Shown: piece by piece, positions 31,485 to 62,167 of the stretch
How positions within the stretch are numbered: position 1 is the first letter of the stretch
Layout: the number at the start of each line of letters is the position of its first letter
Assembly: GCA_930367205.1 (NCBI GenBank)
Contig: OV884011.1
Coordinates: forward strand, 40,189,754-40,253,753
Direction: 5' to 3'
DNA: 64,000 nucleotides
DNA from: Acanthosoma haemorrhoidale
Taxonomy: Eukaryota > Arthropoda > Insecta > Hemiptera > Acanthosomatidae
Translations under genes and position numbers: made by a program
Notes under the pieces: model-generated
What the model was told of the DNA's origin: nothing
The model's input: only the letters and a program-made list of their open reading frames with translations
The model's database searches: none

Positions 31485-31522
31485 TATCTAATGCTGAGGT
31501 TAAATCACCGTCTGATCTCAAA
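31485..31522 (+). CDS. Gene 2 first recognised exon
   Basis: 38 nt, acceptor GTTGCAG, donor GTAATT. Entered in phase 1 and left in phase 0, so an upstream exon ending in phase 1 is required. Encodes (V/x)SNAEVKSPSDLK. Confidence 0.5.
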
Positions 31523-34500
31523 GTAATTATTTTAATTTGCCCTACTTTCTTAAAAATCATAATTCACTAACAATGAATCAACCTTGCAAGGCTAAACAAG
31601 TAGGATAGAAATTAATAACAGTATAGTTTATATTACAATGTCTATATAACTGTCTAATAATATTTTTTCTATTAATTGCAGGATGAAGAAAAACAAGCAG
31701 ATTTGCTATCTATCGATACTGCACCTCTGAAAAACATGTTATCCTCAGACAAAGTATTTTATTTTATTAAATACATAGTATTAATGTATATATTATAACA
31801 ATAATCCATTTTTGCTAAAATTTTACTTGGTTCTTTATTAGGAGTTTCATTTAATATGAACGCAGGATTCTATATGGTTTTAGTGCATAATTTTGTTGAC
31901 AAACATTTGTACTTATATAATTGAAGTAATAGTTACTTTACAATAACAATGATTTATTGATATAGTCTTTGCTGTTAAATGAGCATCTTCATTCCTATTA
32001 GGGTGGACCATAAGTCTGTTAACATTTAAAATCCCTATACAAAATACAATAACAACATGAATGAAGAACTGTTTATTTATTATTGAAGTATAAAAAAGAA
32101 CTTAATTTTTTGAATATGATATTTAAATGTGACTCTTATTATTTGACTCCTGTAACCTGGACCAAAAATTTTCAATGACCACCAGACAAATGTTTGGTGA
32201 TTTTTGATTCCTCAATAAATACTGGATTCCTGATAAAAACTTTACTCTTAAGATCTCCCAAAAGAAAAAAGTCCATTGGGGACAAATCCAAGCTGTGAGG
32301 TAACCAGTTAATGTCACCTCTTTTGGATAACACTTTCTGTTCAAGAATTGCATGAACTGCTACTATAGATACGTTAGAGGTGTGACATATTGCCACATCT
32401 TGCATGATCTCATCATGAAATCCTGAGAAGTCCTGTATTGATGGAGTAAAAACATTCTGTAGTATTGTAATGTATCTTCTCTGATCTTCAGAAAAATATA
32501 GAACATTAATTCCGCTCGCTGATAATGCAGCCAATACAGTAACTTTGGGCAAGTTTAAGTGTTTTTAGTGCTTCAATTGGAGGTTAGTGTCATCCTGTCA
32601 TCTGGAATTTGGTCTGTTGGCATGCCCATTTAGATGGAACTGTGCCTTGTCTCAGAAGAAGATATTGAAACTCATAAACCTCTCAAGCACTTTGTTAGCA
32701 AACTGCAGTCTCTGAGCATGGTCAATAGGCCTTTTAGGCCGAAGTCGGCTGGATCATTGTTGATTTAAAATTGAACCTATCGGGTTGAAATTCTGTACCC
32801 ATATTTTAATTGTTTGAGTTTGATTTCTGTTCCAGGTAGTGTAATGATTACAAAATTTCTGTTTAGCTTTGGTCACAGATTCATTATTCCGATAGTATTG
32901 AAAATGGTTCTTATGCTCCATGATATGCACCCCCCCCTCTGCTCTGGTACCCCTGCCCACGCTGATGAAGCAGTAGCCTATTTGAATGTTAATGGACTTT
33001 TGGTCCACACTGTATTAATAAAAATGAATAGTAGTTTAGTTTATATTAAAATTTCTAAAACAACTGCCTGATCATATTTCTATTAATTGTAGGATGAAGA
33101 CAAAAAAACAAATTTGCTATCTACTGGTACTTCACCTCTGACAGAAGTGTCATCTACTGACAAAGTATTGTATTTTATTATATATATATATATATAGTAT
33201 TAATGTAAATATTGTAACTTTCTTGACAAATACAATTATTAAAATCATACAATTAATAATTTTTTTACTTTAACCTGTTTGGTTAACTTACCTAATTTAA
33301 ATTTTAACATGAACCAGGTTTTATAATTACCAAGAAAATAAACTTGTGAAGAATTTAAATTTATTTAGAACTTGAATTTAATTAAAATTGACTTTTTTTT
33401 AATTTTTAAAGTTGGATTCTGACAAATTAAACCAAAAAAAAGCAAGTCTACATCACAATATTACTCTGCCTAATGGTTGGTTCATGCTCCCAAGAAAATA
33501 GTCCCTGCCACGTCATGAGCTTACCCACTGTTGTTTTAAATTTCACAACTTTTTATGTTTAATCATTTTGATCTATATTATACTTTTATTTTTTGTAATA
33601 ATGTGCCCACATTACCTTCACCCTCTGCCGCAAGTCTTGCCAATTAGTTTATTTTAATTCCATTCCTCTCCCTGTATCTGAGATAGTACGATACTTAGGT
33701 TTCCATCTCGATAAACGGCTGACCTGGAACCAACATACAAGGCTAAAAAGACAAGATCTAAACAGATGCTTTGGACAACTGTACGGACTACTTCAAAGGA
33801 CATCCCATCTCTCAATAAAAAATAAATTACTAATCTACAAAGTTATACCTTAGCCAATCTGGACATACAGAATAGAGCTATGGGGGAGAGTCAAAAAGTC
33901 GAACATCAAGCGTATCCAATCCTTTCAATCAAAAGTCCTTAGAACAATAGTAAATGCCCTTTATTACGTCAGCAACAAAACCCTTCATTGCGGTCTTAAT
34001 CTATCTTACATTCTTAAACTCATCCCTTCCAAGTTCATGAAAGTTCATAGTAACCTATCCAACCACCCTAATCCCGTAGCACAGTCATTACACTGCGCCA
34101 CTCATCCCTATAATCATCCTCGGAGACTAAAACGCCAGTGGCCTTGTGACCTGCTATTAATACATGACAGTGGGAGTCCTTGGAATGGCTCTTGTCAGCC
34201 TCCACTCGTATCCGGTGACTTGGCTGACGGAGGAGCATGGGGGACTTCTCAAGACTCTGCTTCCTATTTTGTATGTGAGGGAGGTAACAACCATGTGGAT
34301 TTGGGAAGTCTCTGGGCTGTTTGTGAATACTGTATGAGCGAATGAATGAAAATTGTAAATATGGTATGAATGAGAACATATTTGACCTTAAATATAACAT
34401 TACAATACTATAACGATAATCCATTTTTGCTTGGTTTTTTATGAAGAGTTTCATTTAATATGATTGTAGGATTCTATATTGTTTTCGTGCATAATTTTGT

Positions 34501-37500
34501 ATATAATTTAGATAATAATTACTTTATAGAAATATTGATTTATTGATACTTTTGTTTTGTTGAATGTACGTTTCATGCCTGGCTTCTTCCACCCATGCTC
34601 TCTTGTCCCCTCCCTCTGTTGCCTAACACTCTGATATATGGCTCTGACAAATAACTCTCAAAACATCTCAGTCTGTCTCCTGTGAAGTATAACCAAATTG
34701 AACAACTCTCAAAGTCTAACACATGACTAACGCTTTATTTGCAACCATACTACTAGTCCAGGCTATGAAGGCCTAAATATCATGATTAGAAAACAAAATA
34801 TTGTAGTTCTGAAATTTGGTGCAGTTGTTGGGGTTAGTGTCCTATACAACATACTCAAAGTCTCTGGGGGTGTGGGGGAGTGGTTTCAAGGTTAACTTTT
34901 TTTTTCTTTTTTTTATAATATCTCACAAACTACTAGTGATTTTAACAAAAACTATTCTATGTACAAAATTAAGATACTCAAAATTGCATATAAAAATGTT
35001 TTTATTCTTTTCTTCCTTTGAGTCAATGGTTTAAGAGATAGCGAGAGTTAAAAACAGGAATTTTCACAATTTTTGTTTAAGCATTTTATTCATGAGAAAA
35101 AAAAAGGGAAAAAATTAATATTGAACAAAGCAAAAGATTTTTAATAAATACACCAGAACTAATAAAACTTTGGTTACCTACTCTCACAGCTGAGGTTTAA
35201 TCGCCAATCACCTATTCCAGCTTTTCTATCTAACTAGATATTTTATTTTTAAATAAAATTCAATTTTATCATAAAAATATCACATTAAATGCAATGTTTT
35301 ATTGATTAATACATATTTTATATTGTATATTTAATGATGTTTTTTAGGGAAAAGTTAAGGATGAATCTAGGAGGAAATCATCTTCACCTGGATTTGAAGT
35401 AATATTTTTAAAAGATTTAACTTTTTATAATTAGACATATTTCTATTATATAATAAGATATTTCTCTAACAATTCGGACTTTACCTGTGTTGTCCCCACC
35501 CTAGTGTTATTTTTGTGAAAAATATATTTTGTTAAAAGCATTAATAATGAGACATATTTGATTTCAGAACTAATCATAAAACCAGTTTTAGAATTAAAAA
35601 GTCTATTTTAGGTACTTAAATTAATATGTAAAAATTCTTTAATGGTTGCTGAACCTGAAGGGTATACTTTTAACCAAATACAGAGCAATTGTTGTCTCTT
35701 GTAAGTCAATCTGTCTTTGAGTTCTATGCTAATGGTCATAGAAAAGATTTATAGAAACATCAAGGTCTAGTGGATACACCTTGATACCTTGATACCATAC
35801 TAACTTTAGCAGTATATGCAGATATAATATTTAGAAGTATAGTAAAACTTCTGAATAGCAGACACCTGCAGGCTTTCTCTGTTTGAGAAAGATATAAACG
35901 TGTGGGTCTTTGACCCTTACTGGTGGCCTAATCGGTGTCCAGCTTATTTGTTGTTTGTTTGATCTGACTCCTTAAGATCTTAGAATCTCTTCCGATCAAC
36001 CAGGTAAGGCATTATTTTGACGAATAAGAGTTGTGAAAATGTTTTGTGCTGTCTCTCTCTACACTGTTATTTATTGACTTGAAAAAATTGGCAGGTGTTT
36101 TCAGATCAATGGAGAGGGTTGCTTCTTCTACCTAGCTTCCTTCTTTTGGATGAACATTTCTGTGTTGTTCCCACTGTTCACGTAATTCTTTTTTTTCCCA
36201 ATTCTGAATCAACGTGTTAAATTGGCAATACTGAAAAAACTCATATTATTCATGTCAATATTTCCTTTTAAAGTTAAATGGACGGAAGTTGATTTGTTGA
36301 TCGAATCTGAAGGAGAAGTACCAAAAAAATGTTAAAGCAATTACCTCTACTACCAAACTGGATTGTCGGGAATTGCCTTTAAAACAAAGCAAAAAAAATT
36401 CTTGGAAAATTAGTTTGAAAATAGTGTTTCTTTTAAATATTCTTTTGTTTTTTATTATTGAATTATATGTTACAGTGATTTAATATTCTCATTATGATAA
36501 TCTAATTATGTAAACATTTAATTTAACTAAACTAATATAAATAGAATAAAGTTCCCAGAATAAGATCCTAAACTGAGCAGAACAAGGGCTACTCAGCAGG
36601 TCGCCAGAGATCAGGGAAGTTCTGGTGAAGCCTGGAGACTCGCCTGCGCTTCACCTTCAGCAGTTATGACCAGCATTGGTGCCAGCGTTGGTCTGAAGCT
36701 CGCCACTGACTACCTAGACCAGGCATGAGGAGCAGGCTGTGGAGAGACGACTCATGTCTGCCTGCAATAATAACAAGGTTGCTGCGCCAGTCTGACCGGG
36801 ATAAGTTAGTTCGTCTTCATAAGTCAGAGGGACTTCGCCAACCAGGGCCTTCAATTTGATGACGATGTGCGGATTTACATCGATAAGGAGATGACTCTGG
36901 ACAACCAGCATCTCTACTGACTAGGAAGGTGAATCTGGTCTGGTTTGCTGAAGGTAGAGTTAAGTGCAGACTGGACAGTGGTCTTTGTCTTTCATTTGTT
37001 GTCATTGGAAAGCCGAGAGACCTGGATGTATTCATGTGACTTCCCCTCAACTGTTCTATTCTAACCTCAATGTCAAGTTTCTTGAAGAATATCTATATTT
37101 TTCTCTACTGCCCACAAATATTCTACTGCATCTTACTTTTTGTAAGACCTCCCCCTACCTCACCAGCCTTCATCCTTAACCTGCTTTTTTGTTTTCTTCT
37201 TTTTCCAATCTTCCCTCTTTCCTAACAACTCTTTATATTTCTTTTCAACGTGTTATTTAGACTACTTATTGTTCTTCATACATTTGTTTCTTTATATTTC
37301 CTTTTTTCCTTTTTATACTAGTTCATTCCTCTCTACTGTAATATTATCATCTCTGGTGATCTAAATACAAATCTCCTATCTGATTCCCACGATAAGCACT
37401 TGTTAGAGGACCTGCTCCATCTATTCACTGCCACCCTTTCACTCCTACACCACACTTGTAAGTCTGTTACTTGGCTGGATCTCCTCCTTGCTCTTATTCC

Positions 37501-40500
37501 TGTAGCCCGGAGGGGGGGGGGGGATTTTAGTGAATCAGCAGCTATGAGGTTGAGTATGGCCAGGAAGGAGAAGCCATCCTATATGAGAACCCGATAGACA
37601 ACAACAGTTGAGAAAACCATGTATTAAAGACAAAGAATTTACTACCACCGACAATGCAGAATATTCTTGTTGTATTATTAGGTTATTTTTATATTAATTT
37701 GTAATTGTGAAGCCTTTTAAGAATGGCACACATATGGACCAAGAATCAATATGTCTCATAATAAATTTTACAATATACCGTTCTGCATAATAAAGTCTTT
37801 TATATATCGAGAACTCTCTAATGCCTGAGGATGACAGACATGGGTTGTTGAGAGCGTTTGTCAATTAAAGAATGGTTTATGAAGAGAACTTCTGGTGTTT
37901 TTCAAAATCTAACTGAAATAACTTGTTCTCTAGTTTCTCAAGTCACAGCTTAGAAACTGTATAATATTTAAAGTTATGATTTTTCCTCAATGGTTTAATA
38001 CAGAGACAGTAACGCAGAGTTTTAAAAAATAAATGGTTATGAAGTTTATTAATAAATAAAATATCTATTTTGTAAGAATCTTGGGAACTATCAATCTCTT
38101 AGGGTTCCATTGATTATTTTTCAATATGAGAAATACTATTGTTTTCATGTGTGAGTCTGTATTGATCTTTGTGAGTCCCCTGTTTAAGCCAGAGACATGA
38201 AATTTTACATGATTCAATATCGGGAAGAGTTAACAAAACAGTTACAGCCATCTACATAAAAAAATCAGGAAGTGTCATTAATCAAAGTGTGTTTTTTTTG
38301 CAGCTGCAGTTTCTTATATAGGGATGATATTTTGTATTGAAATTTTAATTGTTTCCCTGTAGATGATAGAAATAAAAGCTACCTTTTATAAAAATAATAA
38401 ACAGTCAATTAGTAATCAATAATTCATAATTAAAAACAAATATTTTCCTATGATATCAAGTAGGGTAGAAAATTAAAGGACATCCTGATTAATAACATGT
38501 ATTATAGGTTATGTCTTCAGTGGGCTATTATAACAAAACTGTTAAAAAAAACATTTTTGCGACCATAATGAAAATTAATTATGCAAATATCTCACTTCAC
38601 TTGAATTTTTAGTAATTACTATCCAAAGATTAAAGATAGTGACAGGGGCTGGGTTTTGAACCTGTGACACTCCCCATCTTCCTTTGAGGTATTTCTGTAG
38701 AAACTAGCCTTTTCAGCCCTGTCAGTAGCAAATCTCTCTAGCTATGCTCTCATAGCATTCCACCAAGGACAGAGTCTAGTAGTGGAGACTTACCATGTCC
38801 ATTGGTTTAAATTTCCTGTGAGTTATATATATTAAAATTTATCTATATATTTTGGAGAGGCAGAAGATTTATTATTTTATTTATATTTAATTTTTAAAAC
38901 ATATAATAACATAATTAGGCAAACTAACTCTCAATTATGCATTTCATTAATTATTATTAAATAAATATGATTTTAAATTAAATTTTTATTTTTTGTTTGT
39001 AAAAGTATTTTGAATTTTTGTTAGAAGCAAGCTGTGAATATAGGCCCCTGCATTAATTGCTGCCATGACAACAGTTCATCGCCAACTAACTATGAAGTAA
39101 TTTTGTTTAATTTTTCATTTTCAATAAAAATTATATATTTAGATTGAGGATCAGCTTGAGATAACGCAAAAAAAAAAAATGATAAATTTGAACCATATTT
39201 TTTAGTGGATATTTTAAAACACTTTGTGTTTTAGTCAAAGATCTGATCTAACAAGAAATAAACTTATGTATCTTCCTTCTATTGCTTCATTCTTTTTTAT
39301 AATCATATAAACATTTCTCAACATCTGAACTGTAAATTATCTTTCTTATTTTTTAGGAGCGAGACACAGAGACCAGTAGCATTGATGATTCTTATTCTTC
39401 ACCATCACCAGTACCATCTTTATCCAAGGTAATTTTTTGTTTTTATTAAAAAAAAGTCTAGTGTTAAATTTTTCATTAACTAACCAAATAAAAAAACAAA
39501 AATCCAGAAATCAACAACTAACAAACTACCTTTATCTTCTTAATTTCGCTGTCGTGGTTCTGAGCTACTTCTTTGAACATTTATCTCTGAACATTTCAAA
39601 TCTTAATGATGAGTACTGTAATGAATAAGTATGACTGTGATGAAATAATTTAATAGGTACAGGGACCATTTTTAGGGTTTTGAAAACCTGAATCCCTTAA
39701 CTTTTAACCTGTGGGTGTGTGTCTGTTCTGGCCTTTGTGAGTCCCCCTGTTTAAGATAAAGACATGAACATCCAATTTGATAAAAGGAAGACACAAAAAA
39801 TATAGCCATCTTCCAAAAACATAAGTGTCATTAATTAATTAGTAAGTTTAAAAAAGAAAATTATTTTAATTCCAGGAGTGTATCAGATTCTTCAGAGATT
39901 CAGATTCTTCACTCTCTTCTTTCTTCATATCAGACTCTTTACAGCCAACAAACTGTATATTTGGATTCACTCGTCATTCTCTCTAGTTGAAAAAGCGTAC
40001 TGATGAATGTCGGGATATGGTTGAACAATTGTCGGAGGTGCACAATTGTCGGAAAAGGTGAACAATTGTCTGAGGTCAACAATTGTCGGATTGTTGTAGT
40101 TAATAACATGGACCATGTTCCATGTAGGCGTTAATATCTGACTCCATTTATTGATAGGGATGTGTCCCGACAAGACACTGTGTTCAGGATGAGGTTCAGA
40201 GGTTCATAAAGAATAAGACCAGTTTTCAGAGTTCGGGCGAGAGATCGGCAGCGTAATAAGTACAAGTCGTCAGGGGTCTGCTATAGGCTGTGAGGCAAAG
40301 TGCTGTCGTAGAGGTGTAGCATAGCGAGAGTCGATTAGCGGAAGGCTGAGGGGGCTTACCCCCCGAGGCCCTGGCATATCGCGAGGTAATCGGCTGTGGA
40401 GACTAGGAAACAGAGTGTGCCCACCAGGGCCAGGTGGCCCTGGGGTAAGTGATAAGTCGTGCGGCTATGAAGGCTAAGAGACAGAGTGTCTCAGGGCGAA

Positions 40501-43500: not shown

Positions 43501-46500
43501 GGTGTCTTCTTGCGTCACCACTCGCTTCCTTGCAACGGTCGACTGCCCCCACCCTTATTTTCCCACACTTATATTTGAATTTAAACTTTTTTACAGTTTA
43601 TCCATTTTCGTAAAGAATAATTTATATTTCATATTAAGATATAGGATTAATTGCCACAAACATTGTCTAGCACGACAATTGAAACCTCTTTAAAAAATAA
43701 TTTTACAATATATTGGTATATGTGCAGGGACTACAAGAGCCATCATCAGGGGATGAAGAGTTTCACTTTACAGCGGTAAGTTCCTTTTAGTTTAGCTCTG
43801 TAAATAAGAAGTGGGTGGTCACAGACATGAATTTTTCCTGACATTGTTTTGTGCCATTTTCAAAAACATCGATTTGAACCTAAAACTGCTGAATTTGAAT
43901 TTCATTACTGTTTGAATCTTTGAGAATGGTGGCCTAGTTTCTCAAAACCATTCAGAGGTAATTCATTAGAAGCATTGGAGATACAAAACATGAATTTTAT
44001 TTCAGGGGGATACGCACTTTACACCTGAATCATGCTAACAAAATGAATGTTATTCATTAGAATAATATTTAAAAGTTTGATTGTTTTTTTCTATTATTAA
44101 CTTCTGTAAATTTTGCCACTTGATCAGGGACTTTTCTCAGTATTTTTAAAATATCTGTTAATTAATTTGTTGTTGCTCTGGATACACCAAATCAATGTTA
44201 TTTCTTATTAAAATAAAAATCAGACCAAAATTGTTTGAAATATCCTCTTGTGTAATTTGTTATATGGCTATAATTTCATTGTAAAATTAGCCAAAATTTT
44301 GTTTCCGTAATTCTTACCTTTGGCAAACAAAGTTACACATTTATAAATTTTGCCATTAAAATGTTAATATTATGTTTCCCATCTAGGTCCGAAATTAGTT
44401 TAATATGTATTTGTTTCTTTTCAGGCAGAATCAGATTTTTCAGAAGTAGAGGATGAGTACATGGCTTCAGAAGTAAGTTTCTTTCACTATAAGCTCCATA
44501 ATGAAGTTTGGGTACATGAGATCGGAAAACTGATCAAATGGTCGTCATTAACCGATTGCAGAGATAAAAATGATGTGTTAGTTTAAAATTTGCAATATTA
44601 CGGTGACTTGAGTTGCAATGATGTTGTATCTAGTAACAATAGCTGAAATTTCAATTATAAATTAGTGATTTGAATCCAAGGTTAAGGCTAGTTATATTTT
44701 AAAATTACTAAGCTAGTTTTCACTCAATTGTCAACAGTTGGCTCTGCTGACCATATCATTTAACAGTTCTATTTATTTAAGTATTTAAATTTCTTAGTGG
44801 GCAAATAATAAATAAAGTGAGCATTGTAAAAATAATTAATTAATAATAATTATTTGTTATTAATAAATAAATTAAATTTGTTAAATAAAGATAAAACAAA
44901 TACAACAGATCTATAATAGACATGTAGGAATTGGCTCCTGAAGGGAAACTATTTGTTATGTGCAATTGGGAGTAATTAATAAAAATATATGCTCATTCTG
45001 GGTCATTGTCCCGTTAGAATATAAAAAATGAACACACAAGGTAGTATATCTGACTAGCGAAACATCACATTACATTTTATTTTAAATTAACTGAGGCCAT
45101 ATTTCTTAATACTTCTTACAGAGCATTTAGGTGCAATATCTCAAAATCAAAAAATTTGGCGATTAACACTCTTCCGCCAGAGGTGCAATATCTAATACAA
45201 ATTTCAATTCCCCTCAGCAGAACAGAAACAGTGTAGGAAATCTAATGCCCTACAACTTTTGTTTTTTTTGCTATTTCTCTAAAATGAACCCTTCTTGAGT
45301 TAATAACTATTAAATTAATTTTAATGTGTACCAAATTGCTCCTGGCTTTCCACAGTTATGTTGGAGTATACACACACACATCCATTTCTATTTTATAGTG
45401 GATTCAAATCTTATTTATGTTTTATGAATTTTATTTTCAGAAACACAGTTTAGAACATAAAAACCTCTGGATTTGAAATATATTTATTAGAATAATATTT
45501 ATAAAACAGTTGTATTGTCTTTCCACACGTTATAACTTCTTCTTTAATGTAATAGCGCTTTTGATAGCTCTTAAGCTGTCATCTTAGATTATACCAGGTT
45601 GACAGCTTAGAGCTGTCATCTTAGATTACACCAGGTTGACAGCTTAGAGCTGTCGAAAGCGCTATTACATTAAAGAGAAGTTATAACTTGTGGAAAGACA
45701 ATAAAACTGTAATTAGTTTGTAGAGTAATATTTATAATTATTATTTTATTCCTTTAAATATTTTAATAAATTTGACTTTTTAAAAACATCAACTATTTAT
45801 TTCATGGTTTTGGTGCGTATACCACCATTATATATTTTATGTATTTTTATATTTACAGGCGGAGACAGAGCTAACATCAGTGGAGGATGAGTATATGGGT
45901 TCAGATGTAAGTTTCTTTCATTTTACGCTCTATTAATAAGAAATGGATGGTCTCCGTTACTTTGGCCAGGCCAGCCCACCCACCCTTTCTGCCCTACCCT
46001 TTCTGTAAATCTGACAAAATTGTCATTCAGTGAACTGAGTTATAATGGCTATTATTATTCTGAAATAATTATTAATTATAGTTCAATCTTTGCCACAACA
46101 AACATTGAAAATATTATAATTTAGAAAAAAATTCCTTGCAATTTTTGTTCTGATAATTTTGTTTTGTGTAAAGTAAACAGTATTAGTGTTATGTAATAGT
46201 GCTAGACATGGAAAAAAAAAATTGTGGTAATTTTCTATAAAATATATGCTCATAATATAATATTTAGAAAATAAAACATTTTGTCTCTCTCGGCACAATG
46301 TTTTAGCAAAACTCCGTGGACTATTAAAATGGTCACTACGGTGCTGCCATTAAAAATAATGTGATTAGGATTTATATAAAGTACAGAAATTGATAGGCTC
46401 TAATTTTGTATTGTCAATTAATTAAAAAAAGATACAAAGGGGTTCATTCGATGTGTTATAAGAAATCCCTTTCTAGGGAGGTAGCCTTAATTGCAACCTC

Positions 46501-52500: not shown

Positions 52501-54792
52501 GGAGTATAGTAAGTGATTCACCTACTTATTGAGGACTCCCTCGTGAACAGCTCATGTAAGTTGTCTGTTGAAACAGTTTTAAAGCAGAAAAAAGGTTTAT
52601 AAACTGTAGTAACCGGTGTTAATATGGAGAGGTACAATGTTATCAAATAATGGCGCATGCACAAAACTTCATTATATTTAATTTTTATTATGATGTAATA
52701 GTTCCTTTTATTTGTCATCAGAAGATTAATGTTATTTTATGTTTTGCAGGGGGATCCAGAGCTGGCAGGAGATGGGGATTGTAGCATTTCTGTAGTAAGA
52801 TTCTTTAATTTTCTATTTATTGGACATAAGAAATGGGTGCTCCTTAATATGGCAGTCCACCCTTTCCTATTTTGGGTGCTAACTGTCCAAATTGTCTTTA
52901 TTAAACTAGGAAGAGATACTGAGTATGCTATATAATGAATCAAAAAATTAACTTCATTCTGGGACTATAGTCCTTTAAAAATTTAACATAAAGGAATACC
53001 AATGATAAACTGTCTATCCTAGAGACTTACTATAAGTATAATTAGAAAGTAAAGTAAAATACAGCAATGTAGAAACAAAATTAAAAATAAGCCATATGAA
53101 AAATGAAATCGGGAGCTAAATATAAATATAAATTAACGATACTAATACTGTTATTAGCCAAAGATACAAGATTTTTACAAGTGCAGGGCTCAAATCAAAG
53201 GCTTAAAACTGCAGTAAATGAATGGGGAGAGGCTGAAAAGAAAAGGAATAGGTATAAAATAAATGATTCTAAGAGTCCATGGAAAGGCGTAATGAACACC
53301 GTTTATATATTACCTACAATGTTGTTTTGGAGAAGGTGGGTTTATCTGACTACCTGAGAACAGTAATTAACAAAGATGAGAAGATTGGCCAAGAGTTAAT
53401 GAATAGGGTGAAAAAGGATAGTAGTGTATTTTACCAGATCTCCAACACAATTATTGTAAAGATGGTAACCCTGCAAAAATAATGTTGTTTAAAAATGTTT
53501 TCTTTCCCATGATTTTGTATGATAATGAAAGTTGGACAACTCTCAAAGTCATATTAGTAGGATCACAACAATCGAGTTGAGATAACTGGTAAGAATACTT
53601 AGTAAAACAAAAAGAGGCTCTGCAAAATGAGAGAATAGAGAGGAGCTGGAATAGAGAGTTTTAGACCAATCCCAGAGACACTGGAGGAGGGAGCACCAAC
53701 TAAAATGGTTTGTTCTTATTTGCCACATAAGAGATAATAGGAAGGCCACGTAGATATTCAAAGCCATACTATAGGAAGGAGACTACAGGGTAGGGTGGCC
53801 CAGAAAGCTATATAATGATTATATAGAAAGACTTGACTTAGCAAGAGGAGCTTCCATTGGTGAAATGAAACACTTGTGAGACACAGAAAAAGTTAGAAGA
53901 TAGGGACCAAGGATACACCTACACGTTTAGCAGCCCGTAAGAGGTAGACTTAGATGAGGAATAAACAGATTGACAGCCATTATAATTAAAGAATACTAAT
54001 ACAGTTATAAGCCTAAGATAAAAGATTTTGATGCAAGGTTCGAACAGTATCCGGTTAGGTACTCATAATAATAATACAAGTTGATTACAAATATTAATCA
54101 TTTTCAAGTAAAATACATTTTAAATGAAATTAAATATTTTGATAAACTCTGTTTTTTTCCAGAACCAGAGTGTCTGGCTGTTCCACCCAGAGGTCCCATT
54201 TTAACGTATAATGACATAAAAAATATTTCCATTTCCATATAACTTAATGAAGGGTTATTAATTACCAACTTGGTAGTGGAAAAAATGAATATTTTGATAT
54301 ATTAAGTTACTAAGTAAGTTTAAATTAATGGCCTCGAAGTCTAGATTAATAATGTGCGATTTTTCTTTTCTTTTCACTAACTATACTTACATTAAGTCAT
54401 TGAAAGTGACATTAAAACCATATTTGCAACTTGAACTCTTGATGTATGTAGAGGGGTCATATTTTAGGGGGTGATAGGTATGCCTTGATGTTGCTAAAAA
54501 TTAAAGCTAAAAATATGGTACATAATACTCATGGGGAGAAAATTACTTGAATTAATTGAACCTCATACCTTATAAATAAAATCAGAATAACATTGAAAAT
54601 TTGGATGTCAGGAATTGTCAAAAACTGATTCTGAATTTCAGCATTTAGCATTAAAAAAAATAGGGTTGAAATCTTGAGCTATATGACCATTGTGTAGAGG
54701 AGCTGAACCAGGTTGTGTGGAACAATTTTTGTCTTTTTTTGTGAAAGGATTTAAATTAGGAATCATTTAAACAAGTAAATTACTATATATAT

Positions 54793-54826
<34 letters not shown>

Positions 54827-57800
54827 TCTGAAAGTACATTAATAACTTCATTTTCTTATGTATAAACTAATATAATATGTATTATAATATATATTACAAG
54901 AAAAGAACCGAAAGTAATGATATTCACGTGGTCTTTAAGGCCTTCCGTGACAAAAAAAAAAAAAAAAAAATAAACTAATATGATTACCATCCTAATATTT
55001 ATTTAATGATGGTATCTTTAAATGTATTCATCTTTGATGTTAAATTGTTTTTACATAATATTTATACAATATAGATTAGTTTTGTAAAGCAATGATCTAC
55101 AGTTTTAATACAAATAATATACGATCATTCAAATTAGTTGATTCTTTAAAGCTAAATTATTGTTTTAATATTATTGAAAACCCTTTGTTCTTTGTTTTAA
55201 TTTGCTTGTTATTTTTATCAATTTAATTTTATTTAACCAGTTCTATTTAAGTTTATTCAGAAAGTTTTGTTTTATTTACTGCATGGAAAAGGTAACAAAA
55301 TGTAATTATATCTTTAATTATAAAGTTTCAGGAAATGGTTTTAAATATTTTCATTTGGGTTTAAATTTAGTTAGTTATTTTTCAATTTATTGTTTCTTTT
55401 TTATTAGCCAGGGGAGATATTTTTTATTTTACTATATTTTGATTTATGGAGGTTATGATCCTTGAATAAAGTTTTTTTTCTTCCTAAATTATTTTTATAT
55501 GAGAATTGTATTTATTTTATATATATGTATATCCACGATTTTCTTCTTCATTAACTTATTTTTTACTCGTTTGTTTTGAAACAGTTAGAGTAAAAGGGTG
55601 TTCATCTAACCTCATAAAGAATAAAAATTTATTTTATAATGTTTAAATGGTTTATATGTTAATATTATCTCAGGGTTCATTGTGGTCCTTGTAGCATAAT
55701 GTTACTATTTCAAATGTTTCATATTAACATAAATGGTTCAAGAGTTTTATATTGTTAAAAATAATAGTTACTAAAAATGTAACATTACTGACCTGTATAT
55801 TCTTCGAGTGGTTGATTGTCGTCTATGATCCGGTCTCAACATATTGCCTCTCTTCAATGTCTGGTTTTGTGGCTACTGGCCCATTTAACTGACAAAGATA
55901 CAAAGACAAAAGACTAACAGAATGAAGGCTACTCACTCCTAAATGCTCTGCTATTTAGAAGAGCAACCCCCGACTACAAGGTTTTCTCCAAGGGTCATTG
56001 TTTTTCCTAGGGTTATTTCATAATACCTGTCCTACTATAACTGTCTCCCAGTGTTTTTTCCCCAATACCTAAACAATACATATTCCATCAAACCAGATTT
56101 TTATTTTAAAATAAAACTTAATTTGACCATAAAATATCTTATATGATGTGAAATATATGAAAATTAATTAATTTTATTATGATATTTGCAGAGGGAGCTA
56201 AATCCTTCATCAGTGGAGTATCCCCTTTCAGAAGTAAGTTTGGTTCTTACATCGATCTATTTGAAATACCTGTTGTTAAATAATATTTACCCATACCATC
56301 AATTTGGTTGGTAGGCTTTTTTTGTTGTCAACTTTCAGTGCTGAAAGAGATGTTGAGTGTCTGTAGGAAGGTTGGTGGTTAATATTTCATGTTGAACCAT
56401 GGTTGAAGTATGATAATATTTGACCATGAGAAGTTGTTCCTATATTCTGCTGTTTGGTTTGGTTTTATTATTTATTATAATTATTTGTGAAATGCCAAAT
56501 ATTCCAATCATCCACATTTGGGTGGATTTTTTTGACAATTTATGAGAAGTTCCCAAGCTGTGGAAAGTGTAAAAACAAAAATTGTCAAATATCACAACAA
56601 AACGAAAAATGCAGGGTCAAAAATTTTAGTTCTTTATAAAAAAATTGACCCAAATGTGAAAATGCAGTCTCAGGAAAAGACTTACAAATATTAGAGCTTT
56701 TTACTAGAGGGGAACAGAAGAAAGTGGGAGGACAGGAACCGGAGCCAAAGAGTACCAAAGAGTACGAAATACCAAGCTGGGATTTCGAATCATTACATTT
56801 CCTGCATTGGGTTACTTTATATGCGAAACAGTCCTCAACTCAACAAAAATAGGCCAAGAAGGCCATAGAAGAAATTCTGATGTTGGGACAACTCAATTAC
56901 TTAGCCTCCGCTCTGTCTATAGTTCTTCCAATAATGCTCCCTCTACTTCACTCCCATTTCACCAACTTCATCTTCAGCCATCAAGATCCTCTGCACCTTT
57001 TATTCAACAATCCCTTTTCTCCTCACAATATGAAAATGGCATTGTTATTCCTGGACATGTTAAAGCAGGTATTATATCAATATGGAACAGTTACTATCAG
57101 ACAACTTTGTGTAAATAGGTTTGATAGGGTATTTTTATTTCCTAAGTAAATTGTAGCAGATACCTGAATATACTCCTTCCAAACTTTATTTATAACACTC
57201 CAAGTCTCAATGATAATTCTTTCAATACTATGGGGATAAGGGGATAAGAAATTTTAAATGCTCGAAGGGTTGCAGGCAGCTGTTCATTCACAGTGATAGC
57301 AATTCTCATGCTTGTGTCCTTATTTTCAGTAAATGGTTGCACTTATTAATTGCCAGGTATAGCTAATATTTCTTAAATTTAAATGAGAAAACTGGACACT
57401 TTTTTGATACCATTCCTATGACCAAACTTTTTTCTTTTTAACAGGACACACCCCAGAGTAATAATAATAATAAGAACTTTATTAGTACAATAGGCTGATT
57501 TTTTTTTAATAAGCAAGCATGACCATCTGTTAGAGGTCTAATTATAAATAAAATTTATAGGCCTCTTAGAGACCTTTTAATCCACTTTATCTTCAAGCCA
57601 TTTTTATGTAGATAATTCATGTTTGGGATTAGCCATAACATTTAAATCCAGATATCTCTGGGGGATTTCATTCCGGCAAAATCATGTCTAACTCTGTTTT
57701 AGAAAATGTTATGAAATAATATATTTATTGTGAGACTTAGTCCGCTAGGAATAACAAAAATAATTGTTATCAATTAATTAATTACTTGATATTATAACAA

Positions 57801-60800: not shown

Positions 60801-62167
60801 TGATCAGATCCAATATAAGTACAAAGAGAACATCGACTTTGTGGTATAACAACTTTGCTGGTCAAAATATAAACCGAATGGTTCTTATGGTTTTAATCCA
60901 CGCTGTTCCAGTAAGTTTTTTGATAATATCAACTTAAAATTTCTGGTGTCCTGGCAGTCATATAAGCCATGCGACCAAGATTTTGGCATTTTAGAAAAGA
61001 AAGAAAGTTTTTAAACCCATGATTCCCGAACAAAAAGCTCAAATGATTACCGAAGCAAAGAATGTACAACCATTCAAGGGGATGATTTCATTGATTTGGC
61101 CTCGTTATGTGACAAATTTTTGAATACACCATCAATGAAGATCAGTACTGCTTCTAGGATTAATATTTCAAGGGCTAACCAGCCTGTTATAAAAATAAGA
61201 CAATCCTACAATCAAATGTGACTGTGGAGAATGCACAACATTTTGAAAAAGGACGAATCCAATCCTTCAAAGGCATCTCTGAAATTCAATTTTGACCTTT
61301 ACTTGGAAGAAGATCAATCATTAGGAATCCTAAAAAAAAAAGACCTCTCATCTATGTTGGAATATATGGATCCCAAATTGCATGACCTTTATTACCTCTG
61401 TAAATAATTTTTAAATCATAAATTATTAATTAATATTTTTTTCATTAGGTAGTAATATAGTAATTTATTTGTCTTCTGCAAAATAAAACATATTTTTTGC
61501 AGCCAAACTGTTTTTTAAGTCTCCTTTACAGTTTCCTTTCCCATGTCAGCCTCTCAATTAGTAATAATAAATATATATTTTTCCATCATATATTTAGTAG
61601 GGTATCAAATTAAAGATCTCAACGTCCTGATAAATAATATCTAGTATTTGGTGTTATTGAAACTTTCAATAAAATCATTTTTGCAAACATTATGAAAGTC
61701 TTAAATGTAACATATTACTTGCTTTAAATATGTTTTCTTATTAGGCTGATAAGAGTTTGGTGAATGCTGTTGATTCGTCTGATTTTGGAGAGGTTACAAA
61801 GGCGCTACTCCAAGGTGCCTCTATTGATTGTATGAGGGATTATACCAAGCGGACACCTCTTCATACTGCAGCCTTGAATGGAGATAGTATGATTGTGAAG
61901 TTGTTACTGACCTCAGGTGCTAGCATCAACCAGAGGGACACTGACCTTAAAACTCCGCTCCACTTGGCTGCGGCACGAGGCCACGAGGAGGTTTGTTTAC
62001 TGCTTATGGGCACCGGAGCTAACCCCTTCCTGAGGAGTGCTGTAGGCTGGACACCCATGGAAACGGCAGCTCTCTGGGGAAATTACTACCTCGCGGACAT
62101 TCTCAGGGCCCTATCTAATGGGGGCAAAGAGCAACATGAATCTCCATCTAAATTTTATGGTTGTTAA
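31485..62167 (+). CDS. Gene 2: phase-0 microexon gene with C-terminal ankyrin repeats (5' end not found)
   Basis: Exons: 31485-31522, 31682-31753, 33093-33164, 35348-35398, 39025-39096, 39357-39428, 43728-43775, 44425-44472, 45859-45906, 47084-47119, 49121-49165, 52750-52794, 56192-56233 and 61745-62167. From the second on, every exon starts and ends in phase 0, has AG/GT borders (most donors GTAAGT or GTAATT) and is a multiple of three. Fourteen independent joins without a stop are strong support. The N-terminal part is Ser/Asp/Glu/Pro-rich with repeats of the type EVEDEYMASE. The last exon adds about four ankyrin repeats and the stop. The assembled part is 370 residues. No signal peptide can be judged because the first exon is missing. 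Inference: an intracellular protein with a disordered, exon-shuffled acidic arm and an ankyrin interaction domain. Family not recognised. Confidence 0.75.
31682..31753 (+). CDS. Gene 2 microexon, 72 nt
   Basis: Encodes DEEKQADLLSIDTAPL then KNMLSSDK. Acceptor ATTGCAG, donor GTATTT. Clear duplicate of the exon at 33093, with which it shares length, donor and the pattern DExK-LLS-T-PL-SS-DK. Confidence 0.75.
32001..33012 (-). mobile_element. mariner-like transposon, full length but inactive, in gene 2 intron
   Basis: The terminal inverted repeats begin GGGTGGACCATAAGTCTGTT (left) and CAGTGTGGACCAAAAGTCCA (right, reverse strand), with TA outside both ends (31999-32000 and 33013-33014). Size is 1012 bp. 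The minus strand encodes a transposase pseudogene. The N-terminal helix-turn-helix part has YYRNNESVTKAKQKFC and WVQNFNPIGSILNQQ. Next come FHLNGHAN, and then from about 32552 to 32172 MQDVAICHTS and LDLSPMDFFLLG. Counting in this copy gives 41 residues between the second and third Asp, pointing to a DD41D-type element if no indels occurred. Stops and frameshifts make it non-functional. Confidence 0.88.
33093..33164 (+). CDS. Gene 2 microexon, 72 nt, duplicate
   Basis: Encodes DEDKKTNLLSTGTSPL then TEVSSTDK. Acceptor AATTGTAG, donor GTATTG. Duplicate of 31682-31753. The intron that follows is also duplicated. Confidence 0.75.
33600..34372 (+). mobile_element. Jockey LINE 3' fragment inserted in duplicated intron
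   Basis: Begins inside the RT coding region (CCCACATTACCTTCACCCTC matches the copy at 4272) and runs through YLGFHLDKRLTW to the 3' UTR, ending near GGTATGAATGAGAACAT. It is co-oriented with gene 2. It carries extra 3' UTR sequence absent from the copy at 3.7-5.0 kb. Frame broken by stops. Confidence 0.88.
34409..34560 (+). repeat. Duplicate of intron sequence at 31799-31965
   Basis: AATCCATTTTTGCT, GAGTTTCATTTAATATGA, AGGATTCTATAT, GTGCATAATTTTGT and TGATTTATTGATA occur in the same order at both places. Together with the 72-nt exons this shows a tandem duplication of exon plus intron, later split by insertions. Confidence 0.8.
35348..35398 (+). CDS. Gene 2 microexon, 51 nt
   Basis: Encodes GKVKDESRRKSSSPGFE, phase 0 both sides. 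Acceptor TTTTTTAG, donor GTAATA. Contains an RRKSSSP patch, a plausible basophilic or proline-directed kinase site. Confidence 0.68.
35977..36003 (+). CDS. Candidate 27-nt microexon of gene 2
   Basis: Encodes ILESLPINQ in phase 0. Pyrimidine-rich acceptor ending CTCCTTAAG, excellent donor CAG|GTAAGG. It fits between the exons at 35348 and 39025 without changing frame. No repeat relationship to the other exons. Confidence 0.4.
36560..37600 (+). mobile_element. LINE fragment with ORF1 end and endonuclease start
   Basis: GC-richer than its surroundings. At about 36740-36850 reads SACNNNKVAAPV and DKLVRLHKSEGLRQPGPS, then IYIDKEMTLDNQHLY, like LINE ORF1 C-terminal regions. At 37340-37500 comes SGDLNTNLLSDSHDKHLLED then TCKSVTWLDLLLALIP, an apurinic endonuclease block with GDxN and TWLDLLL. 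Interrupted by stops. Lies in a gene 2 intron. Confidence 0.65.
37601..39024. other. Gene 2 intron
   Basis: A SINE-like copy at about 38611-38670 (GGGTTTTGAACCTGTGAC) and a piece of the fold-back family near 38855-38880 (GGAGAGGCAGAAGATTTATT). Nothing else recognised. Confidence 0.45.
39025..39096 (+). CDS. Gene 2 microexon, 72 nt, Cys-containing
   Basis: Encodes KQAVNIGPCINCCHDNSS then SPTNYE, phase 0. Acceptor TTTGTTAG, donor GTAATT. The only microexon with cysteines clustered (C-x2-CC-H), a possible metal- or disulfide-forming spot. Confidence 0.7.
39357..39428 (+). CDS. Gene 2 microexon, 72 nt, Ser/Pro-rich
   Basis: Encodes ERDTETSSIDDSYSSPSPVP then SLSK, phase 0. Acceptor ATTTTTTAG, donor GTAATT. 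Confidence 0.72.
40008..40860. mobile_element. GC-rich unit, possible solo LTR
   Basis: A compositional island in an AT-rich intron. It opens with TGTCGGG, holds four near-repeats of AACAATTGTCGGA within 40024-40090, a TATAAATA box at 40511-40518 and T-rich downstream sequence. This layout fits a retroviral-type LTR. Both exact ends and a target duplication could not be fixed, so the call is tentative. No internal retroelement genes adjoin. Confidence 0.4.
41345..41425. mobile_element. Fragment of the fold-back/MITE family
   Basis: GTGGAAGGATATAATTAAAT then AACTCTGTCTCTCCACAATA matches the left ends of the elements at 1967 and 62335. Confidence 0.55.
41426..43727. other. Gene 2 intron
   Basis: An open plus stretch near 42258-42800 has no recognised domain and looks like decayed transposon. 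No exon compatible with gene 2 was found. Confidence 0.4.
43728..43775 (+). CDS. Gene 2 microexon, 48 nt
   Basis: Encodes GLQEPSSGDEEFHFTA, phase 0. Acceptor ATGTGCAG, donor GTAAGT. First of the 48-nt acidic family. Confidence 0.75.
44425..44472 (+). CDS. Gene 2 microexon, 48 nt (VEDEYM type)
   Basis: Encodes AESDFSEVEDEYMASE, phase 0. Acceptor CTTTTCAG, donor GTAAGTTTCTTTCA. Near-duplicate of the exon at 45859. Confidence 0.82.
45505..45725. mobile_element. Fold-back element with about 95-bp arms
   Basis: TTGTCTTTCCACA, GTTATAACTTCT, TTTAATGTAATAGCGCTTT and GACAGCTCTAAGCTGTC-type blocks at 45509-45600 recur in reverse complement at 45620-45710. The centre is two copies of a unit containing CATCTTAGATTACACCAGGTT. 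It can form a near-perfect hairpin of over 90 bp. Related to the elements at 1.95 and 62.3 kb. Lies in a gene 2 intron. Confidence 0.85.
45859..45906 (+). CDS. Gene 2 microexon, 48 nt (VEDEYM type)
   Basis: Encodes AETELTSVEDEYMGSD, phase 0. Acceptor ATTTACAG, donor GTAAGTTTCTTTCA. Confidence 0.82.
47084..47119 (+). CDS. Gene 2 microexon, 36 nt (DDDYM type)
   Basis: Encodes VELMDDDYMYSE, phase 0. Acceptor ATTTCCAG, donor GTAAGTTTCTTTCA. A shortened member of the VEDEYM family. Confidence 0.78.
47295..47470 (+). repeat. Intron segment duplicated at 48790-48970
   Basis: Shared blocks in order: TTTGAAATAAT, TAGTTATTCTGTCAATATAT, CATCATTA or ATCATTAG-type, TATGTTTTCTTTTTATTACA, then TTTAAGATGG or TTTAAAATGG. 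This shows a tandem duplication of about 1.5 kb in the intron between the exons at 47084 and 49121. Confidence 0.8.
47740..47920. repeat. T-rich low-complexity tract
   Basis: Nearly continuous T/C-rich sequence. The open frame it produces is compositional and not taken as a gene. Confidence 0.8.
49121..49165 (+). CDS. Gene 2 microexon, 45 nt
   Basis: Encodes AEEDQPTRQDGLFLV, phase 0. Acceptor GTTTTCAG, donor GTAAGTTTCTTTCA, the same intron start as the VEDEYM exons. Confidence 0.72.
49200..50879. other. Gene 2 intron, nothing recognised
   Basis: AT-rich sequence without domain-bearing frames, apart from ordinary A and T runs. Confidence 0.45.
50880..51300 (-). pseudogene. Helitron helicase C-terminal fragment
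   Basis: Minus-strand reading shows GKTILSPRIPLILIDMPF, LFKQMQFSVRLVFSMTINK and LQGHSLKMV, matching the Pif1-type helicase end of Helitron proteins (xIPRIPLIP, FQFPVRLAFAMTINKAQGQSL). After it SSKKLFVHVPQIKTRNTVY continues the usual C-terminus. Upstream Rep/HUH and helicase motifs are absent. Truncated and dead. Confidence 0.85.
51430..52190 (+). mobile_element. LINE fragment, RT N-terminal half
   Basis: Frame pieces in order: FGAPCSEVFPVSPDG, then FNYVSPTDFKISVMRVRNNA and TGSEGIPVKLIKL, then LPVLLHIYNFCFQNSVFP, ALVQLLKKPSLPNDFRPISM (RT motif 1 region) and LDPFQSGF. Broken by stops and frameshifts. Its end near 52157 matches the LINE start at 30393. In a gene 2 intron. Confidence 0.75.
52191..52749. 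other. Gene 2 intron
   Basis: No feature recognised. Confidence 0.4.
52750..52794 (+). CDS. Gene 2 microexon, 45 nt
   Basis: Encodes GDPELAGDGDCSISV, phase 0. Acceptor GTTTTGCAG, donor GTAAGA. The following intron start (ATTCTTT, then AAGAAATGGGTG) resembles those after the exons at 43728 and 45859. Confidence 0.75.
53148..53205. repeat. SINE-like repeat copy
   Basis: TTATTAGCCAAAGATACAAG, then AAGTGCAGGGCTCAAATCAA. Second copy at 53996-54045 (GGTTCGAACAGTATCC). Confidence 0.45.
53230..53960 (+). mobile_element. LINE 3' end, late RT/thumb region
   Basis: Pieces in order: VLEKVGLSDYLRTVINKDEK, SSVFYQISNTIIVKM, then in other frames YDNESWTTL-like, a RNEKIREELG-like stretch, RWFGHLCRMRDNRKA-like and LRGRPRKLYNDYIERL-like. 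This order (YGSE..W, RWxGHVxRM, RGRPRKRW) is typical of the C-terminal part of insect LINEs with a restriction-like ending of the RT. Decayed. Confidence 0.65.
54163..54204 (+). CDS. Candidate alternative terminal exon of gene 2
   Basis: Strong acceptor GTTTTTTTCCAG followed in phase 0 by NQSVWLFHPEVPF and a stop. Used as a last exon it would yield an isoform without ankyrin repeats. Alternatively GAG|GTCCCA could act as a weak donor giving a 30-nt phase-0 exon. Sequence evidence only. Confidence 0.3.
   Translation, partial: NQSVWLFHPEVPF
54796..54826. repeat. (AT)n microsatellite
   Basis: Alternating AT of about 30 bp with flanking interrupted AT. Confidence 0.9.
54827..56191. other. Gene 2 intron, nothing recognised
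   Basis: Contains a long A run near 54952-54970 and a T-rich open stretch at 55202-55465 that is compositional. Confidence 0.45.
56192..56233 (+). CDS. Gene 2 microexon, 42 nt
   Basis: Encodes RELNPSSVEYPLSE, phase 0. Acceptor ATTTGCAG, donor GTAAGT. SSVEYPLSE resembles TSVEDEYMGS of the exon at 45859, so it belongs to the same duplicated family. Confidence 0.78.
56234..58369. other. Gene 2 intron
   Basis: A plus open stretch at 56807-57149 in two frames has no recognised domain. Otherwise nothing. Confidence 0.4.
58370..60410. repeat. Pair of related segments about 1.4 kb apart
   Basis: GGTTCTATTAA or GGTTCTATTAAT, AAAAATA and TCTGGCAAAA at 58373-58405 recur at 59764-59800. ATCACAACAATATAT at 58846-58860 recurs near 60389-60403. 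The interiors differ, with a GC-rich block at 59930-60140 only in the second. They could be ends of two related elements or terminal repeats of one composite. A minus open frame at 59085-59339 lies between them, unrecognised. Confidence 0.4.
60540..61410 (+). pseudogene. Decayed transposon ORF with LWY(N/D)NxAGQN block
   Basis: Plus strand. MCLWHEAIADHGGNEMAS and TLWYNNFAGQNINRMVL (60734 on), then in shifted frames FLVSWQSYKPCDQDFGILEK, DDFIDLASLCDKFLNTPSMK and a C-terminal LYLEEDQSLGILKKKDLSSM, ending CK-stop near 61405. It resembles a repeated insect ORF with a DNCxGQNKN block, then SGHSxxPCDxDFxxIE, presumably a DDE-type nuclease; the family name is uncertain. Several stops. In the intron before the ankyrin exon. 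Confidence 0.6.
61745..62167 (+). CDS. Gene 2 last exon: ankyrin repeats and stop
   Basis: 423 nt, acceptor TTCTTATTAG, phase 0, ending FYGC-stop. Encodes 140 residues with about four ankyrin repeats: a degenerate one (residues 3-33, VNAVDSSDFGEVTKALLQGA), two canonical (TPLHTAALNGDSMIVKLLL at 37-55 and TPLHLAAARGHEEVCLLL at 70-87) and a capping one (TPMETAALWGNYYLADIL at 103-120). Canonical TPLH, AA and LL positions are intact. It is GC-richer than its surroundings, as expected of selected coding sequence. A short Ser/Lys tail follows. Role by family: protein-protein interaction. Confidence 0.88.
   Translation, partial: ADKSLVNAVDSSDFGEVTKALLQGASIDCMRDYTKRTPLHTAALNGDSMIVKLLLTSGASINQRDTDLKTPLHLAAARGHEEVCLLLMGTGANPFLRSAVGWTPMETAALWGNYYLADILRALSNGGKEQHESPSKFYGC

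What the first reader, a model, noticed from the sequence alone, without database searches (positions are those of the whole stretch)
31485..62167. Undescribed phase-0 microexon gene ending in an ankyrin domain
Seen: thirteen short segments (36-72 nt), twelve of them phase 0/0, each with AG before and GT after, then an ankyrin exon in phase 0. Total about 1.1 kb coding over 31 kb. Known: runs of tiny symmetric exons allow combinatorial skipping without frameshift, as in schistosome micro-exon genes; aphid bicycle genes also use many tiny exons, but those encode secreted proteins with paired CYC motifs, which are not seen here. Inference: a modular acidic arm with splice-variable length attached to an interaction domain.
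Basis: partly seen in the sequence, partly recalled or inferred. Interest (0 to 1): 0.88.

Follow-up and report, generated by a model that had tools for sequence, protein, structure and literature searches.

The report
Shieldbug gene of repeated tiny exons
In a shieldbug chromosome a gene seems to have grown largely by copying tiny exons that each keep the reading frame, adding a long, partly acidic arm to a small ankyrin binding domain; it looks real and unusual, but no RNA evidence yet shows that the exons are spliced in different combinations.

Summary
The exon run is real. Twelve internal segments (36-72 nt) are open, bounded by AG and GT, phase 0/0, and lead in frame into a 423-nt ankyrin exon with a stop. 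The odd thirteenth segment (38 nt) fits better as the end of a 93-nt first coding exon from ATG 31430. The model: 14 exons, 13 phase-0 introns, 388 aa over 30.7 kb. The strongest evidence is homology: E7-E13 are one exon family with homologous splice flanks (leave-one-out recovers 7 of 7) and E2/E3 a tandem duplicate, so 9 of 12 internal exons go back to duplication; a suspected E1/E4/E5 group failed that test. Only E7-E13 is strongly acidic (-31 in 104 aa); E1-E6 is near neutral, Ser/Thr/Pro-rich, with mostly weaker donors. The last exon is predicted to fold as a complete four-repeat ankyrin domain. The genome is almost certainly Acanthosoma haemorrhoidale, chromosome 1. It is not a bicycle gene (published classifier score -59) and does not fit schistosome micro-exon genes (exons too large; no signal peptide seen); layout and growth resemble those and caseins. 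Variable splicing is plausible but untested. No relative carrying the arm was seen among listed protein hits; genome DNA searches with two exons were insensitive.

The parts
31430..31522 (+).
   Evidence: ATG in frame, in-frame TAA at 31397; start codon is inferred; likeness to E4/E5 failed leave-one-out
31682..31753 (+). E2, mini-exon 72 nt, phase 0/0
   Evidence: tandem duplicate of E3 (found from E3 alone at E 3.5e-16)
33093..33164 (+). E3, mini-exon 72 nt, phase 0/0
   Evidence: 78% nt identity to E2, flanks 82-91% over ungapped columns; found from E2 alone at E 2.8e-16
35348..35398 (+). E4, mini-exon 51 nt, phase 0/0
   Evidence: acceptor 5.6, weak donor 2.0; an upstream intron stretch resembles one upstream of E13; no exon partner confirmed
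39025..39096 (+). E5, mini-exon 72 nt, phase 0/0
   Evidence: acceptor 5.1, donor 3.6; no exon partner confirmed
39357..39428 (+). E6, mini-exon 72 nt, phase 0/0, Ser/Pro-rich
   Evidence: acceptor 10.2, donor 7.6; no duplicate partner found
43728..43775 (+). E7, mini-exon 48 nt, acidic array
   Evidence: leave-one-out E 3.6e-11
44425..44472 (+). E8, mini-exon 48 nt, acidic array, EDEYM motif
   Evidence: (leave-one-out E 1.3e-16)
45859..45906 (+). E9, mini-exon 48 nt, acidic array, EDEYM motif; duplicate of E8
   Evidence: (leave-one-out E 4.5e-21)
47084..47119 (+). E10, mini-exon 36 nt, acidic array, DDDYM motif
   Evidence: leave-one-out E 7.7e-11
49121..49165 (+). E11, mini-exon 45 nt, acidic array
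   Evidence: leave-one-out E 4.2e-12
52750..52794 (+). E12, mini-exon 45 nt, acidic array
   Evidence: leave-one-out E 3.1e-7
56192..56233 (+). E13, mini-exon 42 nt, acidic array
   Evidence: leave-one-out E 3.2e-9
61745..62167 (+). E14, last coding exon: complete four-repeat ankyrin domain and stop
   Evidence: Pfam Ank_2 E 2.3e-24; AlphaFold2 pLDDT 92.3, eight helices in four pairs
62350..62355 (+). AATAAA, candidate poly(A) signal, 183 nt after the stop

Best explanation
A nuclear gene of a shieldbug encodes an intracellular adaptor. Its C-terminal exon makes one complete four-repeat ankyrin domain that binds a partner. Its N-terminal 248 residues are a probably disordered arm made of small exon-encoded modules: a Ser/Thr/Pro-rich block (E1-E6) and a strongly acidic, aromatic-spotted block (E7-E13, with repeats such as VEDEYM). 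The arm grew, at least for E2/E3 and E7-E13, by tandem duplication of mini-exons with their splice flanks. Because every intron is phase 0, any internal exon can be skipped or included without touching the frame or the ankyrin domain, so splicing can set arm length and charge; the weaker donors of E1-E5 make those exons the likeliest to be spliced variably. Shown: exon anatomy, phases, exon homology of 9 of 12 internal exons; the ankyrin fold is predicted. Inferred: transcription, start codon, exon skipping, location in the cell, disorder, partner binding.
For: Anatomy and phases; tandem exon families with flanks (E7-E13; E2/E3; placement test); 12 of 12 internal exons open; length differences inside E7-E13 (48, 45, 42, 36) all multiples of three in a flank-anchored alignment; block charge -8/144 aa against -31/104 aa; donor scores lower in E1-E6 than in E7-E13 (0.4-7.6 against 4.4-11.0, Mann-Whitney p 0.008, blocks chosen after seeing the data); no hydrophobic N-terminus (best 9-residue Kyte-Doolittle mean 0.54 in the first 40 residues); ankyrin domain complete in one exon; the casein genes CSN1S1/CSN1S2, grown by exon duplication into many small exons, show exon skipping, one case tied to a donor change at +6 (PMC12470106, passages).
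Against: No RNA evidence of any kind. E1, E4, E5 and E6 are not supported by homology, and E1-E5 have weak donors (0.4-3.6), so some of these exons might not be real or never used. Selection on the arm is not clearly visible: E2/E3 dN 0.28, dS 0.20; pooled family differences by codon position 0.37/0.45/0.49; only E8/E9 looks constrained (dN 0.25, dS 0.85; 16 codons). Disorder was judged from composition only.
Confidence: 0.45

Rival explanations
1. Same gene, but all mini-exons are constitutive: a fixed arm on an ankyrin domain. The exon array is a by-product of repeated exon duplication, and phase 0 is simply inherited from the first duplicated exon.
For: Phase identity follows automatically when one symmetric exon is copied; E7-E13 keep moderate to strong donors (scores 4.4-11.0); the weak third-position excess fits near-neutral drift.
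Against: Weak donors in E1-E5 (0.4-3.6); in casein genes, with many small exons, skipping is described repeatedly (PMC12470106, passages).
Confidence: 0.35
2. The duplicated pairs of equal length (E2/E3, 72 nt; E8/E9, 48 nt) are used as mutually exclusive exons, giving alternative sequence rather than alternative length.
For: Equal length and phase, adjacent, homologous flanks; tandem duplicated exons are known to be used this way, though such events are rare (PMC9741552, start of abstract in search listing).
Against: Introns between the pairs are long (1339 and 1386 nt), so nothing structural forbids joint inclusion; E7-E13 is a run of seven, not a pair.
Confidence: 0.06
3. A decaying or unexpressed gene: the exons are relics of a duplicated array.
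For: E2/E3 dN exceeds dS; weak donors in E1-E5; little visible selection in E7-E13.
Against: No stop or frameshift in 12 of 12 internal exons, and an intact 140-codon ankyrin exon with no close second copy listed in the genome; AG and GT kept in all seven members of E7-E13.
Confidence: 0.08
4. Two transcripts: the mini-exon array and the ankyrin exon belong to different genes.
For: The largest intron (5511 nt) separates them; the next-best ankyrin exon in the genome, also starting phase 0 after an acceptor, shows no phase-0 mini-exon in the 2.5 kb upstream that could be read.
Against: Same strand, matching phase, stop plus AATAAA after the ankyrin exon, and no stop in the array frame before it.
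Confidence: 0.06

Closest known systems
Casein genes CSN1S1/CSN1S2 (secretory calcium-binding phosphoprotein family)
   Same: Coding region split into many small exons that arose by exon duplication; exon skipping described repeatedly (PMC12470106, passages). All-phase-0 introns and acidic Ser clusters are recalled, not read.
   Different: Vertebrate and secreted (recalled); here an insect gene, no signal peptide seen, and an ankyrin domain at the end.
Schistosome micro-exon genes (MEGs)
   Same: 10-20 short exons, mostly multiples of three, in introns of 0.1-5 kb (PMC10526429, passages); here 14 coding exons, 12 of 12 internal multiples of three, 12 of 13 introns <=5 kb.
   Different: MEG exons are mostly 15 bp (range 6-81), or 6-36 bp covering about 80% of the coding region (PMC5825161, passages); here 36-72 nt covering 56%. 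MEG proteins keep a signal peptide; none is seen here.
Aphid, phylloxeran and scale-insect bicycle genes
   Same: Hemipteran genes with many small internal exons sharing one phase (PMC9168663, passages).
   Different: Almost all bicycle internal exons are phase 2, and many of the proteins have signal sequences and CYC motifs; here 12 of 12 are phase 0, no CYC, no signal seen; published classifier score -59.4.
Ankyrin-repeat adaptor proteins
   Same: E14 is a standard four-repeat ankyrin domain; the best-ranked solved folds are mainly designed ankyrin repeat proteins (best 50 of 1271 shown).
   Different: None of the 120 listed relatives of 584 found with the joined model covers the whole arm plus the ankyrin domain; best coverage 57% at 29% identity.

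Membership tests
Bicycle gene | Internal exons almost all phase 2 | tested here: not met
   0 of 12 internal exons phase 2; 12 of 12 phase 0
Bicycle gene | Gene-structure classifier above cut-off (0.72) | tested here: not met
   Published coefficients (PMC9168663) give a linear predictor of -59.4; -5.0 even if all 12 exons were phase 2
Bicycle gene | CYC motifs | tested here: not met
   No CYC in the 388-residue model; 8 cysteines in all
Bicycle gene | N-terminal signal sequence | tested here: inconclusive
   No hydrophobic stretch in the first 40 residues, but the first exon is inferred and no signal-peptide program was run
Schistosome micro-exon gene | Short exons, mostly multiples of three, between long introns | tested here: met
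   12 of 12 internal exons multiples of three, 36-72 nt; introns 159-5511 nt
Schistosome micro-exon gene | About 80% of coding region in exons of 6-36 bp | tested here: not met
   1 of 12 internal exons is <=36 nt; all 12 together are 56% of the coding region
Schistosome micro-exon gene | Secreted, with signal peptide | tested here: inconclusive
   As above
Schistosome micro-exon gene | Protein variants by alternative splicing | not testable with these tools
   No RNA data available
Ankyrin-repeat protein | Ankyrin repeats above the Pfam gathering score and helix-pair fold | tested here: met
   Ank_2 86.2 bits against 27.3; predicted model with eight helices
Casein / SCPP | Secreted calcium-binding phosphoprotein of vertebrates | not tested
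   Insect genome; compared for gene layout only

The most novel reading that the evidence does not exclude
A splice-set charge rheostat: a lineage-specific shieldbug gene in which two blocks of phase-0 mini-exons, one Ser/Thr/Pro-rich with mostly weak donors and one acidic, tandem-duplicated, with mostly strong donors, are combined differently between tissues to tune the reach and charge of an ankyrin adaptor. The divergent neighbour, also made of symmetric mini-exons but in phase 1, would show that such genes are a habit of this genome.
Probability: 0.2. Interest if true: 0.75.

Novelty: new variant of a known kind. Interest (0 to 1): 0.5.

Why it matters
Runs of tiny same-phase exons are known to me mainly from secreted, fast-evolving genes (schistosome MEGs, bicycle genes, caseins). 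Here the same layout is attached to an ankyrin domain with no sign of secretion, and many of the tandem copies are still readable with their flanks, so growth by exon duplication and its use in splicing could be tested directly with long-read RNA. Automatic annotation has trouble with such genes (said of MEGs in PMC10526429, passages).

Tried and rejected
Candidate extra exon E0 (29931-29987, open, phase 0/0): left out, because E1 works as a first exon; an alternative 5' start through E0 is not excluded. Reading segment 31485-31522 as an internal exon: rejected for its poor acceptor and the need for an unseen phase-1 exon. An E1/E4/E5 exon group: the profile was built from its own members, and leave-one-out failed in 3 of 3 (E 10, 2.3, 0.61; best unrelated hits 5.4, 2.6, 3.2); adding E6 did not help (E 2.1, 1.4, 0.2; E6 itself not found). 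Bicycle membership: rejected. Two 137-aa ankyrin frames on C4 as paralogues: 37-38% identity, generic. Further members of the exon families within 100 kb either side: none, the only extra hit being a weak one at E 0.91. Copies elsewhere in the genome: E8 with flanks matched only itself and E9, E2 only itself and E3; but the E8 search also failed to list E7, E10 and E11, its known relatives next door, so it says little about diverged copies. E13 could not be searched. Named ankyrin family for E14: none; 566 proteins matched, 120 listed, at most 47% identity. Rfam: nothing at gathering scores. The last protein search went to lineage, so the arm was never searched alone; the query carried E0 and not E1.

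Full report
WHERE IT IS. The window is C1:40189754-40253753 of a genome of 865,609,456 bases in 72 contigs. C1 is 193,544,673 bp, exactly the longest chromosome of the hawthorn shieldbug assembly ihAcaHaem1.1; C4 is 120,689,761 bp against 120.69 Mb for its chromosome 4; that assembly has 72 scaffolds and 865,622,309 bp, 12,853 more than held here (PMC9971695, passages). So the species is almost certainly Acanthosoma haemorrhoidale, chromosome 1 (OV884011.1). That note reports HiFi reads, and the term RNA-Seq does not occur in its main text. A reverse-transcriptase frame of the window fits a true bug: best hit 73% in a record named Pantoea sp. Taur (probably insect DNA in a symbiont record; that it is a stink-bug symbiont is recalled), then, among named hits, Ranatra and Triatoma, with a termite and butterflies or moths further down.

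THE OBSERVATION. The 13 segments exist. Twelve are 36-72 nt, open, multiples of three, bounded by AG and GT, phase 0/0. The first, 38 nt, is the exception; its acceptor scores -0.4 on a generic matrix. Its frame extends back to ATG 31430 with an in-frame TAA at 31397. I therefore read it as the end of a first coding exon of 93 nt. The model is then 14 coding exons, 13 introns all phase 0 (159-5511 nt), 1167 nt with stop, 388 aa, and an AATAAA 183 nt after the stop. The start codon is inference.

CHANCE. Splice consensus alone does not carry the case. With cut-offs 5/5 the plus strand of the region has 11 candidates, 7 of them on the list, and the minus strand 6; with 4/4, 19 (8 on the list) against 17. 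Openness is better: 12 of 12 against a mean of 3.6 of 12 for intron-drawn pieces, none of 20,000 draws reaching 11, though the segments were partly picked for being open. Homology is decisive for nine exons. A profile of E7-E13 with 30 nt upstream and 25 nt downstream, built seven times with one member left out, recovered the missing member every time (7 of 7, E 3.1e-7 to 4.5e-21), while the best non-member in those runs had E 0.31. AG and GTAAG are invariant in all seven, and the length differences between members (48, 45, 42, 36) are multiples of three. E2 and E3 are tandem copies: exons 78% identical, flanks 82-91% over ungapped columns, with a retrotransposon piece now inside the downstream flank of E3; each finds the other at E about 3e-16. 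Of 20 self-similar segment pairs in the locus (two of them inverted), 6 have both sides on a mini-exon; shifted exon maps reach that in 58 of 20,000 trials. Against a fuller claim: a suspected group E1/E4/E5 looked strong only because its profile was built from its own members; held out one at a time they score E 10, 2.3 and 0.61, like unrelated sequence. E1, E4, E5 and E6 therefore rest on frame and splice sites alone, and the donors of E1, E4 and E5 are weak. A stretch upstream of E4 resembles one upstream of E13, which may or may not mean common origin.

UNIQUENESS. Within 100 kb either side there is no further family member except one weak hit at E 0.91. In the whole genome, E8 with flanks matched only itself and E9, and E2 only itself and E3. 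That search is insensitive: it did not list E7, E10 or E11 either, so diverged copies elsewhere are not excluded. The ankyrin exon matches itself at 100% and next a terminal exon at C1:166507194-166507562 (38%, E 3e-17), which also begins in phase 0 after an acceptor; in the 2.5 kb upstream that I could read there is no hit to the exon families and no phase-0 candidate at the cut-offs used (two candidates of other phase). In 5.8 billion proteins, the ankyrin exon found 566 relatives (120 listed, at most 47% identity), and the joined model 584 (120 listed, best coverage 57% at 29% identity): generic ankyrin proteins. Among those listed, none carries this arm. The arm alone was not searched.

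WHAT IT ENCODES. E14 alone is a complete four-repeat ankyrin domain (Ank_2 86.2 bits; AlphaFold2 on 26 aligned sequences, pLDDT 92.3, eight helices; best-ranked solved folds are mainly designed ankyrin repeat proteins). Pfam finds nothing in the arm. The arm (248 aa) has net charge -39, unevenly spread: E1-E6 -8 in 144 aa with 45 Ser/Thr/Pro, E7-E13 -31 in 104 aa with two basic residues. E8, E9 and E10 carry an EDEYM/DDDYM motif. The donors of E1-E6 score lower (0.4-7.6) than those of E7-E13 (4.4-11.0; p 0.008, blocks chosen after seeing the data). There is no hydrophobic N-terminus, so nothing points to secretion, though no signal-peptide program was available.

MECHANISM. Shown: anatomy, phases, homology of nine internal exons; the fold is predicted. 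Inferred: an intracellular ankyrin adaptor whose arm grew largely by tandem duplication of mini-exons; since all introns are phase 0, exons can be skipped without frameshift, so arm length and charge may vary. Against it: no RNA data; little visible selection (E2/E3 dN 0.28, dS 0.20; pooled codon-position differences 0.37/0.45/0.49 over 281 compared codons; only E8/E9 looks constrained, dN 0.25, dS 0.85). A constitutive arm is nearly as likely.

COMPARISON. Bicycle genes have internal exons almost all in phase 2, many signal sequences and CYC motifs, and the study detected none in three outgroups (PMC9168663, passages); here 12 of 12 are phase 0, there is no CYC, and the published classifier gives -59.4. 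Schistosome MEGs match in layout (10-20 short exons, mostly multiples of three, introns 0.1-5 kb; PMC10526429, passages) but are secreted, with mostly 15-bp exons, and another paper gives 6-36 bp for about 80% of the coding region (PMC5825161, passages); here 1 of 12 is <=36 nt and the mini-exons are 56% of the coding region. Casein genes CSN1S1/CSN1S2 resemble it in growth: exon duplication into many small exons, with skipping described repeatedly (PMC12470106, passages; a paper on the wider SCPP family, PMC13367325, passages, mentions exon duplications but gave nothing on intron phase). It works like these in layout; it is not shown to be a member of any. Six paper searches asked about such genes (listing 15 of 31, 8 of 8, 15 of 164, 12 of 306, 10 of 27 and 7 of 7 papers); in those listings I saw no description of such a gene in true bugs. 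The library holds open-licence papers only, so this is not proof of absence.

VERDICT. A real, probably functional gene of unusual make, a new variant of a known kind (symmetric mini-exon genes); the splicing idea remains a testable proposal.

Noticed in passing
window 27492-17931, minus strand: A divergent neighbour gene model also made of symmetric mini-exons: coding exons of 13, 45, 57, 57, 57 and 2180 nt, all introns phase 1, 802 aa, acidic then basic head and a long Ser/Thr-rich repeat exon; no Pfam match to the long exon.
   Followed up: partly
window 33640-34345: Retrotransposon piece inside the duplicated flank downstream of E3 (31790-31962 resembles 34405-34548); related, longer frames lie at 3750-4825 (reverse-transcriptase match of 3750-4538).
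   Followed up: partly
window 45506-45710: Self-complementary stretch of about 205 bp (83% over 207 columns, so two arms of about 100 bp) in the intron before E9, like a small hairpin element.
   Followed up: no
about 22-82 kb upstream of the window (C1:40.107-40.168 Mb): Cluster of cuticle-protein-like frames with GPV/PGAV repeats, some in repeated blocks of about 5.3 kb (family name recalled).
   Followed up: no
C1:166507194-166507562, minus (L036): Ankyrin terminal exon, 38% identical to E14, also starting in phase 0 after an acceptor; its upstream exons were not reached.
   Followed up: partly
C1 about 159.73-159.90 Mb, C1 about 113.69-113.76 Mb, C4 about 73.57-73.76 Mb: Clusters of long open frames (hundreds to about 2000 aa) full of ankyrin repeats; 204 Ank_2 matches in the genome, a lower bound.
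   Followed up: no
window 3750-4538 and protein P0240: A public bacterial record (Pantoea sp. Taur) holds a reverse transcriptase 73% identical to this insect element, probably host DNA left in a symbiont assembly.
   Followed up: no
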